Part shown: positions 48,837 through 56,804 of the stretch, piece after piece
Position numbering within the stretch: the stretch's first letter is position 1
Layout: the number at the start of each line of letters is the position of its first letter
Origin: Haloplanus sp. CK5-1
GTDB taxonomy: Archaea > Halobacteriota > Halobacteria > Halobacteriales > Haloferacaceae
Reading direction: 5' to 3'
NCBI RefSeq assembly: GCF_037201915.1
Contig: NZ_CP147505.1
Span: 1,426,001 to 1,490,000 of the forward strand
DNA: 64,000 nt
The notes under the pieces: generated by a model
Seen by the model: only the letters and a program-made list of their open reading frames with translations
What the model was told of the DNA's origin: nothing
Database searches by the model: none
Position numbers and translations under genes: made by a program

Positions 48837-49160
48837 CTACTCATCGGGATTGACTGGGCCCTTGTACTCAGAACAGATTTTTTCGCCGTCCCGCCACTGC
48901 CAGTAGTAGTAGCGGTTGTCGTTGATCTCCTTGATCGTGATTGTGGCCTTCGACGGGACATCATCCGGAAGGTCATCCGGCCGGTCGTCGATCTCGTCCT
49001 CCTCCGACTCCTCTTCGAGACGGGCCTCGCGAGCTTTGTGCTCAGCTAGTTCTTCAGCGTAACGGGCAACGTGCTGGAGCTGGTCTGAAGAGTACCCGTT
49101 GAGTGTGTTGACGATCTCTGTTGGGAGTTCCGTCGGCGGCGTTGGTGGCTCATATGACAT
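48837..49160 (-). CDS. DUF6788-like small protein
   Basis: 107 aa from MSYEPPTPPTELPTEIVNTL. An N-terminal helix region (SSDQLQHVARYAEELAEHKA), an acidic low-complexity middle, and a C-terminal YYYWQWRDGEKICSEYKGPV domain match a family widespread in haloarchaeal plasmids and accessory DNA. The function is unknown. A decayed copy is at 56582-56804. A 9-bp inverted repeat lies just upstream of the start. Confidence 0.75.
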   Translation of the reverse strand: MSYEPPTPPTELPTEIVNTLNGYSSDQLQHVARYAEELAEHKAREARLEEESEEDEIDDRPDDLPDDVPSKATITIKEINDNRYYYWQWRDGEKICSEYKGPVNPDE

Positions 49161-51821: not shown

Positions 51822-52622
51822 TCACCGTTCCCCACTCTCCTCCCACTCCGGACGTGGTGTCGGGGACGGGAGTTCGTCAACCACAGTTCGGAGTTCGTCC
51901 TCTGTCGTCCACGGGAAGCACCGTTCGTGGAGTTCGAATTTGCGGAACTTGTTGAGATGAACCCAGCTGTACGTTGCTGGCTCTTCGCCCTCATTTGTCC
52001 GGTCGTCGATCACATCCCACACCTCCTGTTCGTCGATGTCGAGACCGCTCTCTTGGGCGCGATCAACGAGCGACTCGACGTTTGCTTGGACGTCATCCGC
52101 CGCCAAATCGTCTGCGAACGCAATCTCAAGGGCGGCCTGAACGACGTGCTGTGTCGAGTCAAGATTCTCGTCAGTCACCCACGCGTAGTCACGTGGGAAC
52201 ACGTACGACTTGTCGAAATACGGTGGGTCATCGATCTCGCCCAATTCAGGCGCCTCCCCACCACTCTCCTTCTCGAAGACACCGACGATGTAGTCGCTGT
52301 ATGTCGCGAGCAACGAAAACATGATATCGAACGTATTGAGTCGGTCAGTCGGGAGTTCGAGGAGATCGCCCATGATGAACGGATAGGCACCGAGCTGCTT
52401 CGTGAGTTCGTTCTGGACGGCGCGAAGCCGGCGGATATAGGGATCGCGATAGCTCCCCAAGATGAAATACGATGTCCGCTGACTCCAGAGATACGGCAAT
52501 TCACGCTGGGTAAACCGCCAGATTTCCCGTTTCTCTGCGGGCTCCAGTTCGATGCCCCCGACGGCCTCGTGAACGACGGTCATAATCCCCCCAGCGTCCG
52601 GCGGCGGGCTTGGGTCGGTCAT
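51822..52622 (-). CDS. Conserved-looking acidic protein of unknown function
   Basis: 266 aa from the ATG at 52622 (MTDPSPPPDAGGIMTVVHEA). It is largely helical and soluble: IWRFTQRELPYLWSQRTSYF, LGSYRDPYIRRLRAVQNELT, ADDLAADDVQANVESLVDRA. There are no catalytic or metal motifs. It is divergent from the winged-helix gene at 52738 with 115 bp between, a common arrangement for a regulator and its target. It is possibly part of a small two-gene accessory module. Confidence 0.65.
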   Translation of the reverse strand: MTDPSPPPDAGGIMTVVHEAVGGIELEPAEKREIWRFTQRELPYLWSQRTSYFILGSYRDPYIRRLRAVQNELTKQLGAYPFIMGDLLELPTDRLNTFDIMFSLLATYSDYIVGVFEKESGGEAPELGEIDDPPYFDKSYVFPRDYAWVTDENLDSTQHVVQAALEIAFADDLAADDVQANVESLVDRAQESGLDIDEQEVWDVIDDRTNEGEEPATYSWVHLNKFRKFELHERCFPWTTEDELRTVVDELPSPTPRPEWEESGER

Positions 52623-52737
52623 TAGCTGCCGATTCAAACCACACCAGCTTATTCCTTCTGAATCACTTTGGCTTTTTCTGGATTAACCAACTTGGATGAC
52701 CCTAACTGTTATAGCGCCCTCCCTCGTACCAGCACGT

Positions 52738-53226
52738 ATGAGCGAAACCGACACTGGTTCGGCCGATGCAGGGCCGTTCGCGGAACAGCAGCGGCTGTTC
52801 AAGCTGCTGTCCCAGGATACGCGCCATCTCATCATCCAGGAGCTGCTGGGCCATCCCGCCCATCTAATGTCGCTCGCCGAACTCGAGTATATGACCGGGA
52901 AGAGCCAGGCGGCCATCAAAGACCAGTTGGAGACGTTGATCGACGCCGGGCTCCTCGCACGCTACACGTACGAACCAAGCGAGGGGAAACGTGATCTCCC
53001 CTCCCAGTTCTACGGATTCACAGAGCGGGGGGTCGAGGTCCTCCACGACTACAAGTATCTCCGTGGGCTTCCGGTCGCACGTGCCCTCTACGAAAACACG
53101 CGCAAGACCGAGAAAATCGAGCGCCACGAATCGGCCCCTCGCCCGGAGCTTCCGGATGCCGTCGCGGAAGCCCTCGACTTCGACGAGCCCGATCTCGACG
53201 CCGTCGATGGTGGCACAAACCCATAG
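52738..53226 (+). CDS. Winged-helix regulator
   Basis: 162 aa from MSETDTGSADAGPFAEQQRL. HTH core: FKLLSQDTRHLIIQELLGHP, then MSLAELEYMTGKSQAAIKDQ and wing DLPSQFYGFTERGVEVLHDY; ArsR/MarR-like. The C-terminal 45 residues are charged and acidic. It presumably regulates the divergent 266-aa gene. A ttaaccaac half-site lies at 52683 in the shared intergenic region. Confidence 0.78.
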   Translation: MSETDTGSADAGPFAEQQRLFKLLSQDTRHLIIQELLGHPAHLMSLAELEYMTGKSQAAIKDQLETLIDAGLLARYTYEPSEGKRDLPSQFYGFTERGVEVLHDYKYLRGLPVARALYENTRKTEKIERHESAPRPELPDAVAEALDFDEPDLDAVDGGTNP

Positions 53227-53288
53227 TTCGTTGTTGAACAGCACCGTTCTCAACGCTGCAGAGAAGGTACGCCGACTTCGTACCTTGG

Positions 53289-54029
53289 TCAGGACTCCGT
53301 GGGCTCCAGCATGGCTGGCTCGACGTTGATTCGGAGGCGATACGTACTGTCGGTCGATCCGGTGTCGGGCCGCGTCGGATCCAGCAGCGAGTACCCACTC
53401 GTGAACGACGCGACGAGTTCCTTGCGAGCGGGGAGGTCGATGCCGAGCTGGTCGGCGAGGTAGACGATCCGTTTGGTCGCAGCGCCGTTGTCGAGATGCT
53501 CAAGGTACTCGTTTGCGAGATCGAACCACTGCGTGAAGTCGATGGGCTCGAAGACAACGTGGTACTCAGGGTTTGTCTCTTTGAACCGCCGGTCGATAGA
53601 GGCGCGAAGCTCGTCAACTGACTGTCTCGTCGGCTCGCCGACTCGGGCGAGAAACCGGCCGCGGAGATCCGTATCGGTCGCGAGTGCATCACGTAGGAAC
53701 GCGCGGAGTTCGTCGGCGTCGGCGCCATCGAGTGCGGCGTCGAGTTGATCGCCTTCGTCAGGCGGGGGGTCGTCGATACACCGAAGCAACACGGCGACGA
53801 CGTGCTTGCACGTACCCGGCCCGTCGTACGGACAATCACACCACGGGGCAAACCCGTCGGTGGCGAGGTCAACACGGACCTCGTACTGACGGCTGCCGCT
53901 CACGATGGCGGTTACGGTGGTACCGATGCAGTGTATTTCGTGGATACGGCTCTCAGTGAGATATCGTTCGCCACGTTCGAAGACCGCGTCCGTACAGATA
54001 TCTCGAACCGCCTCCTCGGTTACGTCCAT
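53289..54029 (-). CDS. SWIM zinc-finger protein
   Basis: 246 aa. The SWIM motif CxCx(n)CxH is clear: WCDCPYDGPGTCKHVVAVLL near residues 63-82, preceded by strands GSRQYEVRVDLATDGFAPW. The C-terminal two-thirds is helical (LRAFLRDALATDTDLRGRFL), matching the SWIM-associated helical region seen in archaeal and bacterial proteins. SWIM domains bind DNA or protein and occur in SWI2/SNF2 and transposase contexts. The partner here is unknown. Confidence 0.82.
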   Translation of the reverse strand: MDVTEEAVRDICTDAVFERGERYLTESRIHEIHCIGTTVTAIVSGSRQYEVRVDLATDGFAPWCDCPYDGPGTCKHVVAVLLRCIDDPPPDEGDQLDAALDGADADELRAFLRDALATDTDLRGRFLARVGEPTRQSVDELRASIDRRFKETNPEYHVVFEPIDFTQWFDLANEYLEHLDNGAATKRIVYLADQLGIDLPARKELVASFTSGYSLLDPTRPDTGSTDSTYRLRINVEPAMLEPTES

Positions 54030-54165
54030 ATGCGTTGACGGTGTTCCAGCGCGAACGGGAAAACCGATCGTCGATCTCGCCTTCGCACTGGATTAGAACG
54101 GTCTGGTTTTGCGAGAAGCCATGATACAACTGTAGCACACCTAGAACTCCCAGCTTGGCGGAGTC

Positions 54166-54303
54166 CTATTCGGTGGCGAGTTCCTCGTAGATATCCGCGT
54201 GCTCGTCGAGGTCTTGACGACCGAGGAACCGGATGAGATACTGCCGCGCCTCCTCGGCGGACAGCTCATCGGGCATCTCGGGCGGCTCGCTTTCAGCGGC
54301 CAT
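54166..54303 (-). CDS. 45-aa acidic protein, possible antitoxin partner of Doc
   Basis: MAAESEPPEMPDELSAEEAR, QYLIRFLGRQDLDEHADIYE, then ELATE. It starts 2 bp after the Doc-like stop, so the pair is probably co-translated. The size, acidity and helical character suit an antitoxin fragment or an accessory, but there is no Phd or AbrB-like DNA-binding segment, and the gene order (toxin first) is unusual. Confidence 0.5.
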   Translation of the reverse strand: MAAESEPPEMPDELSAEEARQYLIRFLGRQDLDEHADIYEELATE

Positions 54304-54305
54304 GC

Positions 54306-54856
54306 TTATTCCTCACTACGGGGGTCGTGGTCATAATCGTTCGGTTCGTGGGATTCCTGCTCGCCGGTGTCGCGGTCCGCCGGGAGCTGCTCCGCTCCCT
54401 CGATACGGGCCAGCCACAAATTGATGATCGCCTCGTATTCCGGTGTCAGCGGCTCTGTGTGCGCCCGCAGATACGCGAGCACGTCGTCCGCATCGACGCT
54501 GGACTCATCCGTCGCGAACGCCTTCACAATCTCTTTGATCTCCCGATCGTAGTCGAAGCGCAGCACATTCAGCGCGTAGAAAATCCGGGTCGACATGAGC
54601 GCCGTTCGCTTATTACCATCAATGAACGGATGATTGGCCGCAATGAGCCGGAGCAGTTGGAAGGCCTTCTCGTGGAGCAATTCGGCGCCCTGACCGAACT
54701 GGCCTTCCTGAACGTGTTCCACGGCGTATTCGATATCGCCTGGCGAAGCCACTCCGGCGGTGGTCTCTGCATTGCATCCACGATCAGCTCGTGAATGGCG
54801 TGGATGTCGTCGGCCGATAGGTAGCTGATGACCAGATCTGGGCGACAGTAGTCTAT
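54306..54856 (-). pseudogene. doc: Fic/Doc-family toxin gene with a frameshift
   Basis: The Fic core is complete: QLLRLIAANHPFIDGNKRTA (motif HPFxDGNKRT), preceded by SPGDIEYAVEHVQEGQFGQG. The N-terminal part LVISYLSADDIHAIHELIVD is in another frame; one extra base near 54776 would join them (VDANAETTAGVAS). The first in-frame codon next to the operator is ATA at 54856, where an ATG would be expected. Doc proteins phosphorylate elongation factor Tu-type targets and stop translation. This copy is probably inactive unless the frameshift is an error. Confidence 0.68.
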
Positions 54857-54904
54857 ATTCCAATCTCACCGATATAATTATAAATACATCGGTGTAATTG
54901 GAAT
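54857..54904. promoter_or_regulatory. Perfect 48-bp dyad operator between divergent genes
   Basis: Arms attccaat (54857-54864) and attggaat (54897-54904), plus inner arms accgat (54868-54873) and atcggt (54888-54893), are perfectly symmetric, with 3-bp gaps on both sides and a 14-bp AT-rich centre containing ttataaat. It fills the space between the Doc start and the ATG at 54907, covering both TATA boxes. It would allow one dimeric repressor to control both leaderless transcripts. Confidence 0.8.
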
Positions 54905-54906
54905 CT

Positions 54907-56568
54907 ATGAGGGAAGCAGAGCTTCGAGTTATCGACGGTTTACGCGATCGGTCCTACTCAGTTGGCGAGTTAGCCGATGCAATCGATAAAAGTCAAAGCT
55001 GGACATCGGAGGTCGTTGGCGACCTCGAACACGCCAATCTTGTGGAGCGAACCGACGGCGTCCAATTGGCAACCACGTACGAAGCGTCACTGCTTGCCGA
55101 GCTCCTTGACCGCTACGCACTTACGAAGGTACTGACGGGAACGAAAGAGGACATTTTGAGTGCGCTGGTTGGCGGCCCGACGACGATTTCGGAGTTACAA
55201 CAGCAGGGCTTCGCCAAGTCCACGCTCTACAAGCATTTGAACGAGATCCAGGAAACTGGCGCGATCGCGCATACGGACGATGGGTATATCATCAGCGATG
55301 ATACGCTCCGGTCGTTTCTCGAAGCTAAAACCCGAACGACACCGTTCGAAACCGAATACCGCGCGAACGGCGACCGAATGGTCGCGACGAGCAAGGACAC
55401 CGTCGATGGGAAGCCGACTGCGTTCTCGGCGTTCACTCGCTACGGTGTTGACTATCACCCAGCGAAGACCTACGTGTATCAAGGTGATCGCTCGCTAGAA
55501 CTCGAAGCAATTCTGATCCATGCGGTGACTGTCGCTGAGAACAAGAAACAGATGGCGATGGCTGGCGTGTTCTATCTCACGCATCGCGCGAGCCTCGACA
55601 CCAGCGACCTGTGGCGGCTCGCAAACAGGTGGGAGTGCGTCGAGAAATGGGCCGATCTCTTTGCATACATCGATCAGCGGGAGGTCCACCACGAGGAGCT
55701 CTTTCTCCCGTGGGAGGAATTCATCGATATCGCGAACGACTATGGGGTCTATCCGCGCGGCCAACATCCGGAAGATAGCCTTCGACGGGGGCTCGAAGAG
55801 CTTGGCGACTACTTGGAGACGTCTGCCGACGTGTATCTTCTCGGCGGTGGCAACCTCATTCTGCGTGGGTTGAAGGATTCAACGAAAGACGTCGACATCG
55901 TCGTTGAGGACGGACAGACGTTCCTCGCACTCGCTGAATCGCTCCAGGACCTGGGATACGAGGAGCGTGGTGACTTGGAAACGGCATACAACCAACTCGA
56001 TCCCAGTATTGTGCTGGAGAAGGAGGGATTTCCACGCTGGGACATCTTCGTAGAGGCGGTTGCTGGTCAGCTCCAGTTGACGCCGGCGATGATCGAGCGG
56101 TGCGACCAGTCATTCGAGTACGGCAATCTCCATGTACATCTGCTCTCGCTGACTGACATCTTCGTATTCAAATCGATCACGGAACGCGAAGGCGATCTCG
56201 AAGACGTCGCACTGATCGCCAGACAAGCCGACCTCAACTGGGAAAGTATCTTCCAAGAGATCACAACCCAGGAAGATCGCACTGACCAATTCTTCTCCTT
56301 TGCAGTGCTTGATACGCTCAATATCCTCGATGAGCGACACAATATTGCGGCCCCAATTACCGATCGCCTCGTCTCGTACTGTCTCGAGAACGCGTTGCTC
56401 GTCTTGCTGGACGCTCCGAAAACGATCGAAGACCTCCGAGAAGAGCTGGATTTTCCCGATCACCAGATCTACAACAAGCTCCGGAAGCTCGAAGAGGAGG
56501 GACAGATCACCGTCGACCGCAGCGGTCGGCTCAATACATACCAGCGGGCCGAATCGACTGATCGGTAA
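54907..56568 (+). CDS. HTH-nucleotidyltransferase-HTH protein (AbiEii/DUF6036-like core)
   Basis: 553 aa. An N-terminal HTH (SYSVGELADAIDKSQSWTSE) lies at about 15-45 and a second winged helix at about 80-120 (TISELQQQGFAKSTLYKHLN). A DNA-polymerase-beta-type nucleotidyltransferase motif (LLGGGNLILRGLKDSTKDVD, hG-G...DxD) is near residues 310-330. A C-terminal winged helix ends the protein (DFPDHQIYNKLRKLEEEGQI). It may be an autoregulated toxin- or antitoxin-type enzyme of the AbiEii/MNT kind that carries its own DNA-binding domains. It is divergent from the Doc module and likely its regulator. The TTG at 54898 is not the start. Confidence 0.8.
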   Translation: MREAELRVIDGLRDRSYSVGELADAIDKSQSWTSEVVGDLEHANLVERTDGVQLATTYEASLLAELLDRYALTKVLTGTKEDILSALVGGPTTISELQQQGFAKSTLYKHLNEIQETGAIAHTDDGYIISDDTLRSFLEAKTRTTPFETEYRANGDRMVATSKDTVDGKPTAFSAFTRYGVDYHPAKTYVYQGDRSLELEAILIHAVTVAENKKQMAMAGVFYLTHRASLDTSDLWRLANRWECVEKWADLFAYIDQREVHHEELFLPWEEFIDIANDYGVYPRGQHPEDSLRRGLEELGDYLETSADVYLLGGGNLILRGLKDSTKDVDIVVEDGQTFLALAESLQDLGYEERGDLETAYNQLDPSIVLEKEGFPRWDIFVEAVAGQLQLTPAMIERCDQSFEYGNLHVHLLSLTDIFVFKSITEREGDLEDVALIARQADLNWESIFQEITTQEDRTDQFFSFAVLDTLNILDERHNIAAPITDRLVSYCLENALLVLLDAPKTIEDLREELDFPDHQIYNKLRKLEEEGQITVDRSGRLNTYQRAESTDR

Positions 56569-56581
56569 TTCTGCACCAAGA

Positions 56582-56804
56582 TCATTCGTCCGGGTTGACT
56601 AGCTTTTTGTACTTCGGCGTCACTGAATCTCCTCCCCGCCACTGCCAAGAGTCGTAGCGCTTGACATTGATGTCCTTGATTGTGATTGTGGCCATCGACG
56701 ACTGGCCGCTCGTCAATCTCGGTCTCATCCGAATCATCTTCGAGGCGGATCTTGTGAGTCTTGTACTCTGCCAGCTCCTCGGGATAGCGTGCGACGTGCT
56801 GGAG
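56582..56804 (-). pseudogene. Decayed DUF6788-like gene
   Basis: One frame gives LQHVARYPEELAEYKTHKIR, then LEDDSDETEIDERP, and another gives MATITIKDINVKRYDSWQWR, ending KLVNPDE. Both match the intact protein at 48837-49160 in order (LQHVARYAEELAEHKA, ATITIKEIND, GPVNPDE). The N-terminus is missing and a deletion or shift separates the two parts. The fragment abuts the stop codon of the 56805 gene. Confidence 0.68.

What the first reader, a model, noticed from the sequence alone, without database searches (positions are those of the whole stretch)
54857..54904. Perfect 48-bp nested dyad exactly filling a divergent promoter
Two pairs of arms (8 and 6 bp) are perfectly symmetric around 54880.5. 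The dyad fills the interval between the two expected start codons and contains the TATA-like sequences for both genes. The HTH-nucleotidyltransferase protein is the obvious candidate repressor of both itself and the Doc module.
Basis: partly seen in the sequence, partly recalled or inferred. Interest (0 to 1): 0.65.

Follow-up and report, generated by a model that had tools for sequence, protein, structure and literature searches.

The report
Self-repressor operator of archaeal regulator–nucleotidyltransferase
A 48-base mirror-image DNA site sits exactly on the promoter of a gene for a DNA-binding protein fused to a toxin-like enzyme in a salt-loving archaeon, and sites built the same way precede every relative examined across this archaeal class, so it is almost certainly the switch with which the protein controls its own production.

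Summary
The dyad is real: 54857–54904, 20 of 24 half-positions symmetric (perfect 8- and 7-bp arms, so not 'perfect' overall), the best in the window; about 0.0005 expected by chance. It is a family-wide operator. All 19 distinct full-length homologues of the 54907 gene keep it, centred 27–28 bp upstream of the start codon. The gene is a fusion of a double-winged-helix regulator and a DUF6036 nucleotidyltransferase. Elsewhere in haloarchaea these are two adjoining genes, and all 57 such operons analysed carry the same nested dyad at the same place (26 of 26 after removing redundancy) but with different letters; both halves change together. The symmetry centre is the TATA box. Best explanation: autorepression by the gene's own product, architecturally like bacterial AbiEi at the abiE promoter. 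The NTase fold matches MenT1, so a toxin–antitoxin role is plausible but untested. Verdict: observation confirmed with small corrections; self-repression supported, Doc regulation not. New variant of a known kind.

The parts
54857..54904 (.). Nested dyad (operator), centre 54880.5
   Evidence: 20/24 half-matches, best of window; same place in all 19 distinct full-length fusion loci
54857..54864 (+). Left outer arm ATTCCAAT
   Evidence: positions -24 to -19 are 94-100% conserved in 17 fusion loci
54867..54873 (+). Left inner arm CACCGAT
54874..54886 (.). TATA-box region ATAATTATAAATA at the dyad centre, about 27 bp before the ATG
   Evidence: sequence; position fits leaderless haloarchaeal promoters (PMC4983044)
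54888..54894 (-). Right inner arm ATCGGTG
54897..54904 (-). Right outer arm ATTGGAAT
54907..56568 (+). Regulator-nucleotidyltransferase fusion gene, 553 aa
   Evidence: single-origin fusion of a two-gene system
54922..55047 (+). wHTH 1 (residues 6-47)
   Evidence: Pfam HTH_5, E 5e-10
55150..55269 (+). wHTH 2 (residues 82-121)
   Evidence: Pfam HTH_20 E 2e-9; HVO_A0261_N E 1e-7, below its cut-off
55417..55749 (+). HVO_2833_C-like domain (residues 171-281)
   Evidence: E 2e-6, below curated cut-off here; E 5e-48 in two-gene regulators
55798..56268 (+). DUF6036 nucleotidyltransferase domain (residues 298-454)
   Evidence: Pfam E 1e-5, above cut-off; fold match to MenT1; motifs kept in all 35 sequences compared
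56401..56523 (+). C-terminal wHTH (residues 499-539)
   Evidence: Pfam TrmB, E 1e-7
54306..54856 (-). doc/Fic remnant: frameshifted, ATA at start position (neighbour, not part of the system)
   Evidence: DOC_P1 and Fic hits; comparison with relatives

Best explanation
The dyad is the operator with which the product of the 54907 gene represses its own promoter. The protein is a double-winged-helix regulator fused to a MenT-like nucleotidyltransferase. A dimer (or two monomers) binds the two half-sites. Each half-site has an outer and an inner arm about one helical turn apart, possibly one per winged helix. Binding covers the TATA box and its flanks, so TBP/TFB cannot load and the probably leaderless mRNA is not made. 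When free regulator falls, expression resumes, as in an autoregulated toxin-antitoxin operon; here regulator and putative toxin are one chain. Shown: the dyad, its conservation and fixed spacing, symmetric change of both halves, one site in the genome, the fusion architecture and intact NTase motifs. Inferred: binding, repression, dimerisation, arm-to-domain pairing, leaderless start, toxicity.
For: The site is kept 27-28 bp upstream of the start in all 19 distinct full-length fusion loci. The two most diverged fusions (57-58% identity) have new letters but still a dyad (17-20/24). DNA homology to the diverged loci starts exactly at the dyad's left edge, while neighbours differ. All 57 two-gene operons have the dyad 27-28 bp before the regulator start: mean 15.4/24 at -28 against background 6.1 (sd 0.8) in 26 non-redundant loci; with the TATA core left out 11.1/17 against 4.3 (sd 0.6). 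Left and right halves match within subfamilies (16.5-18.8/24) better than across (8-16). Both exact half-sites in the own genome lie in this dyad. wHTH domains, NTase motifs in 35 of 35, MenT1 fold match E 1e-4. Bacterial AbiEi represses abiE by binding a dyad of the same size and layout (PMC3985639).
Against: No binding, footprint, start-site or toxicity data. In one search the regulator start was chosen among in-frame candidates with help of the dyad score, so the exact spacing is mildly circular, although the N-termini are homologous. The protein could activate or be a ligand-dependent switch rather than a plain repressor. Toxin function rests on fold and motif similarity only.
Confidence: 0.82

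Rival explanations
1. The dyad is a shared operator of a divergent promoter that controls both the fusion gene and a Doc toxin module.
For: In the window the doc remnant begins just left of the dyad and the TATA region is nearly symmetric.
Against: No other fusion locus has doc beside the dyad. Intact doc relatives have an ATG start and no such dyad. This doc is frameshifted, with the same frameshift in a second genomic copy, and has ATA at the start position; homology to relatives ends at 54829.
Confidence: 0.05
2. The dyad is the end (recombination or transposition site) of a mobile cassette, because DNA homology among loci starts exactly at its left edge.
For: The homology edge coincides with the dyad edge in diverged loci; neighbours differ.
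Against: Closer loci share up to about 200 bp beyond the edge. No second copy of the arms occurs at the gene's 3' side or elsewhere in the genome. The distance to the start codon is fixed, and two-gene operons have the same layout with other letters. Rapid drift outside a constrained operator explains the edge.
Confidence: 0.04
3. The dyad is an operator, but for another (global or host) regulator rather than for the gene's own product.
For: The binding partner was not measured; a comparison of sequences alone cannot name it (inference).
Against: Arm letters change together with the subfamily of the adjacent regulator, and only one such site exists in the genome, which a global regulator would not give.
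Confidence: 0.06
4. The dyad acts as an RNA hairpin (attenuator or translational control) in the 5' leader.
For: Inverted repeats can form hairpins (general knowledge; no call supports it here).
Against: The TATA box is at its centre and the start codon about 27 bp downstream, so in a leaderless transcript nearly all of the dyad is not transcribed (72% of Hfx. volcanii protein-coding transcripts are leaderless, PMC4983044).
Confidence: 0.03

Closest known systems
AbiE type IV toxin-antitoxin system (AbiEi/AbiEii; S. agalactiae abiE promoter, PMC3985639)
   Same: Winged-helix regulator upstream of a polymerase-beta-type nucleotidyltransferase; the regulator binds a pair of 23-bp inverted repeats separated by 3 bp (49 bp in all) over the core promoter and represses it. 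The half-site of one haloarchaeal two-gene subfamily (TGTTGCA...TACCGAA) even resembles TGTTGCTTTTATACC.
   Different: No match to AbiEii/DUF1814 or AbiEi Pfam models; the NTase is DUF6036, the regulator has two wHTHs plus an HVO_2833_C domain; archaeal TATA promoter instead of -35/-10; in the window both parts are one protein. Toxicity and neutralisation untested.
MenAT (MenT1 / MenA1, MenA3) of mycobacteria (PMC10435456, PMC7319586)
   Same: Best structural match of the NTase half is MenT1 (Foldseek E 1e-4, target TM 0.56-0.63). A MenA-type antitoxin, Rv2827c, autoregulates through two sets of inverted repeats.
   Different: 14-18% identity over the match; no MenA1-like small antitoxin seen; Rv2827c has four repeats and negative cooperativity, here a single dyad.
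Haloarchaeal HVO_2833-type regulators (Pfam PF24271)
   Same: Two-gene regulators match HVO_2833_C at E 5e-48 to 3e-29.
   Different: No paper naming HVO_2833 or DUF6036 was found in the held library; the fusion matches the domain only weakly.
Phd/Doc type II toxin-antitoxin
   Same: A doc/Fic remnant lies next to the dyad in this genome.
   Different: It is decayed and the association is not conserved.

Membership tests
AbiE type IV toxin-antitoxin | Two-gene operon: wHTH regulator followed by NTase | tested here: met
   Met by the two-gene relatives, with adjoining or overlapping stop/start; in the window both are fused in one frame
AbiE type IV toxin-antitoxin | Toxin belongs to DUF1814/AbiEii by sequence | tested here: not met
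   Pfam gives DUF6036, not AbiEii; the PADLOC AbiEii model hits only one two-gene NTase, weakly (E 7e-4), and not P0001
AbiE type IV toxin-antitoxin | Polymerase-beta NTase motif hG[G/S]x9-13DhD | tested here: met
   LGGGNLILRGLKDSTKDVD, kept in all 35 sequences (one with a small insertion)
AbiE type IV toxin-antitoxin | Antitoxin of the COG5340/AbiEi family | tested here: not met
   Domains found are wHTH x2 and HVO_2833_C; no AbiEi structure among the listed PDB matches
AbiE type IV toxin-antitoxin | Inverted repeats of about 23 bp over the core promoter | tested here: met
   24+24 (or 24+1+24) dyad on the TATA box in 19 fusion and 57 two-gene loci
AbiE type IV toxin-antitoxin | NTase toxic, neutralised by the regulator | not testable with these tools
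   Needs expression tests
Autoregulated transcriptional repressor | Conserved operator at own promoter, unique in the genome | tested here: met
Autoregulated transcriptional repressor | Direct binding and repression | not testable with these tools
   Needs gel shift and reporter
Phd/Doc operon regulation | Functional doc transcribed from the dyad promoter | tested here: not met
   Frameshift and ATA start position; association not conserved

The most novel reading that the evidence does not exclude
A class-wide haloarchaeal toxin-antitoxin family (double-wHTH regulator plus MenT-like NTase), unreported in the literature held here, of which one lineage has become a single-chain system: operator binding and NTase activity are tethered in one protein that sits on a symmetric operator built around the archaeal TATA box.
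Probability: 0.45. Interest if true: 0.65.

Novelty: new variant of a known kind. Interest (0 to 1): 0.52.

Why it matters
It gives an uncharacterised gene family, found in 182 of 391 haloarchaeal genomes searched, a concrete regulatory mechanism and a testable toxin–antitoxin hypothesis. It also shows that the AbiE-like plan (a regulator on a nested dyad over the core promoter, followed by an NTase) recurs in archaea on a TATA/TFB promoter. The symmetric letter changes between subfamilies offer a natural set for working out which winged helix reads which arm.

Tried and rejected
Doc as co-regulated partner: rejected. Mobile-element end: rejected, since shared flanks extend beyond the dyad in close relatives and there is no second copy. 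Regulon in own genome: no second site; the next hits have at least 2 mismatches of 17 in a single half-site, about the number expected by chance. PDB sequence search with the protein alone: nothing; with the profile only generic wHTH proteins at the top. The first search for palindromes in L021, L025 and L031 used the wrong strand and was corrected. Literature on DUF6036 and HVO_2833: none found in the held open-access library.

Full report
OBSERVATION. The window is haloarchaeal by its homologues (60% G+C). Between 54857 and 54904 the sequence reads ATTCCAAT-CT-CACCGAT-ATAATTA | TAAATAC-ATCGGTG-TA-ATTGGAAT. The two outer 8-bp arms and the two inner 7-bp arms are exact; the spacers and two central positions are not, so 20 of 24 half-positions pair. 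It is the strongest 48-bp dyad in the 64 kb (next best 17). About 0.0005 such dyads are expected in the window by composition, and none of 20,000 local shuffles reached 20.

THE GENE. The + strand gene (54907–56568, 553 aa) has a winged helix (residues 6–47), a second one (82–121), an HVO_2833_C-like domain (171–281, below Pfam's cut-off), a DUF6036 nucleotidyltransferase (298–454, above cut-off) and a C-terminal winged helix (499–539). AlphaFold2 (mean pLDDT 78, low-confidence stretch 144–197) and Foldseek against the PDB give MenT1, the NTase toxin of a MenAT pair, as best match (E 1e-4, target TM about 0.6), then TM1012, a small NTase. The polymerase-beta motif LGGGNLILRGLKDSTKDVD and a second motif FKSITEREGDLED are kept in all 35 proteins compared, with a small insertion in one.

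CONSERVATION IN FUSION LOCI. Homologues were found in GTDB genomes and by whole-genome search of 391 haloarchaeal genomes. All 19 distinct full-length fusion loci (the window and 16 close relatives, plus two at 57–58% identity) have the dyad with its centre 27–28 bp before the start. A truncated copy in Haloquadratum (L010) has only a degraded site. Per-column conservation falls on the arms: positions -24 to -19 and -13 to -8 and their mirror images are mostly invariant, while the spacers vary. DNA homology to the more diverged loci begins at window coordinate 54857, the left edge of the dyad, and ends near the gene's stop; neighbouring genes differ from genome to genome. The two diverged loci carry ATTCCAACTATAGCAATA-type arms with a one-base centre: letters differ, symmetry remains.

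TWO-GENE RELATIVES. Most relatives are two adjoining genes: a 306–316-aa double-wHTH regulator with a strong HVO_2833_C match (E 5e-48 to 3e-29), then a 267–281-aa DUF6036 NTase, usually sharing or touching stop and start codons. Sixty such loci were fetched; 57 could be analysed (three lacked a usable regulator frame). In all 57 there is a nested dyad 27–28 bp upstream of the regulator start. In 26 non-redundant loci the mean half-match at offset -28 is 15.4 of 24, against 6.1 (sd 0.82, maximum 8.6) at other offsets. Leaving out the TATA core, the arms alone give 11.1 of 17 against 4.3 (sd 0.62). Caveat: where several in-frame starts existed, the one with the best dyad was taken; the homologous N-termini support the choice. 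Arm letters are subfamily-specific: GTAACA...CGAAAC, GTTGCA...CCGAAGT, (G/A)TCTCA...CGCAA, ATTCCAAT...CACCGAT. Left and right halves match within a subfamily (16.5–18.8 of 24) better than between subfamilies (8–16). This symmetric change, together with change of the adjacent regulator, is what one expects of a site read by a dimeric protein encoded next to it. Trees of the regulator and NTase parts both put the fusion proteins in one clade (support 100/100 and 100/99), so the fusion arose once in this sample.

PROMOTER. The centre of the dyad, ATAATTATAAATA, is at the TATA box position for a transcript starting at or near the ATG; in Haloferax volcanii 72% of protein-coding transcripts are leaderless, and the proposed haloarchaeal elements are CGAAA (BRE) and TTWT (TATA) (PMC4983044). 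In many two-gene operons the inner arm contains CGAAA, so arm and BRE coincide. A protein on the dyad would exclude TBP and TFB. The spacing of the arms in the window (outer to inner about 10 bp, inner to inner about 21 bp, counted from the sequence) puts all four on one face of the helix, which fits a dimer of double-wHTH subunits; this is inference.

DOC. The minus-strand neighbour matches Doc/Fic but is not a working gene: compared with intact relatives (L059, L060) it has a frameshift near its N-terminus, shared with a second, 95% identical copy elsewhere in the genome (L058), and the position of its start codon reads ATA. Homology to doc relatives stops at 54829, and those relatives have other sequence upstream. 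No other fusion locus has doc next to the dyad. The dyad is therefore not a Doc operator in any conserved sense.

REGULON AND MOBILITY. With up to 3 mismatches the half-site pattern finds only the two halves of this dyad at 0 mismatches in the genome; all other places have 2 or 3 mismatches and occur singly. Seventy-three plasmid records hold a relative; one viral-contig scan found none.

COMPARISON. The nearest known design is the abiE promoter of S. agalactiae, where AbiEi binds 23-bp inverted repeats 3 bp apart and represses (PMC3985639), and its relative Rv2827c (PMC7319586). The layout and gene order are alike; the sequence families are not (DUF6036 and HVO_2833_C rather than DUF1814 and COG5340). 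It works like AbiE regulation but is not filed as AbiE. Toxicity, neutralisation and binding are untested.

VERDICT. Observation confirmed with small corrections. Self-repression strongly supported by comparative evidence (0.82). Doc regulation not supported. New variant of a known kind; interest 0.52.

Noticed in passing
window 56585-56804 (-) and 48840-49160 (-); L061:392-712 (-): A 107-aa acidic haloarchaeal protein without a Pfam match (MSYEPPTPPANLPTEIV...YYYWQWREGD) is the divergent neighbour of many two-gene systems, its ATG about 111 bp from the dyad centre. It also lies near three fusion loci (L008, L017, L021). The window has a decayed copy just 3' of the fusion gene and an intact copy at 49 kb: a possible third component.
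   Followed up: partly
window 54306-54856 (-); L058 (G000:C1:2326500-2332500): A doc-containing segment (53497-54829) is duplicated in the genome at 95% identity; both copies share the doc frameshift.
   Followed up: partly
window 54166-54303 (-): A 45-aa acidic ORF directly downstream of doc (MAAESEPPEMPDELSAEEARQYLIRFLGRQDLDEH...) is conserved next to doc in relatives L059 and L060; candidate partner of haloarchaeal doc.
   Followed up: no
window 51907-53292; L009:1244-2628: This block is 95% identical to a block upstream of the same fusion gene in Halobellus clavatus, where the SWIM-protein and doc region lying between them in the window is missing.
   Followed up: no
L010, L029, L032, L033: Decaying or truncated fusion copies (internal stops or fragments) exist in Haloquadratum and other genomes.
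   Followed up: no
L005, 1864-3230 bp after the fusion gene start: A different wHTH plus NTase-like gene pair with overlapping ends lies downstream of the fusion gene in Halosegnis, suggesting clustering of such modules.
   Followed up: no
two-gene loci L061-L120: The inner operator arm often contains CGAAA, the haloarchaeal BRE consensus, on both strands, so these promoters are symmetric and could in principle fire both ways.
   Followed up: no
L062, L040 and similar (TGTTGCA...TACCGAA): The half-site of one haloarchaeal subfamily resembles the S. agalactiae abiE half-site TGTTGCTTTTATACC (PMC3985639), possibly by chance.
   Followed up: no
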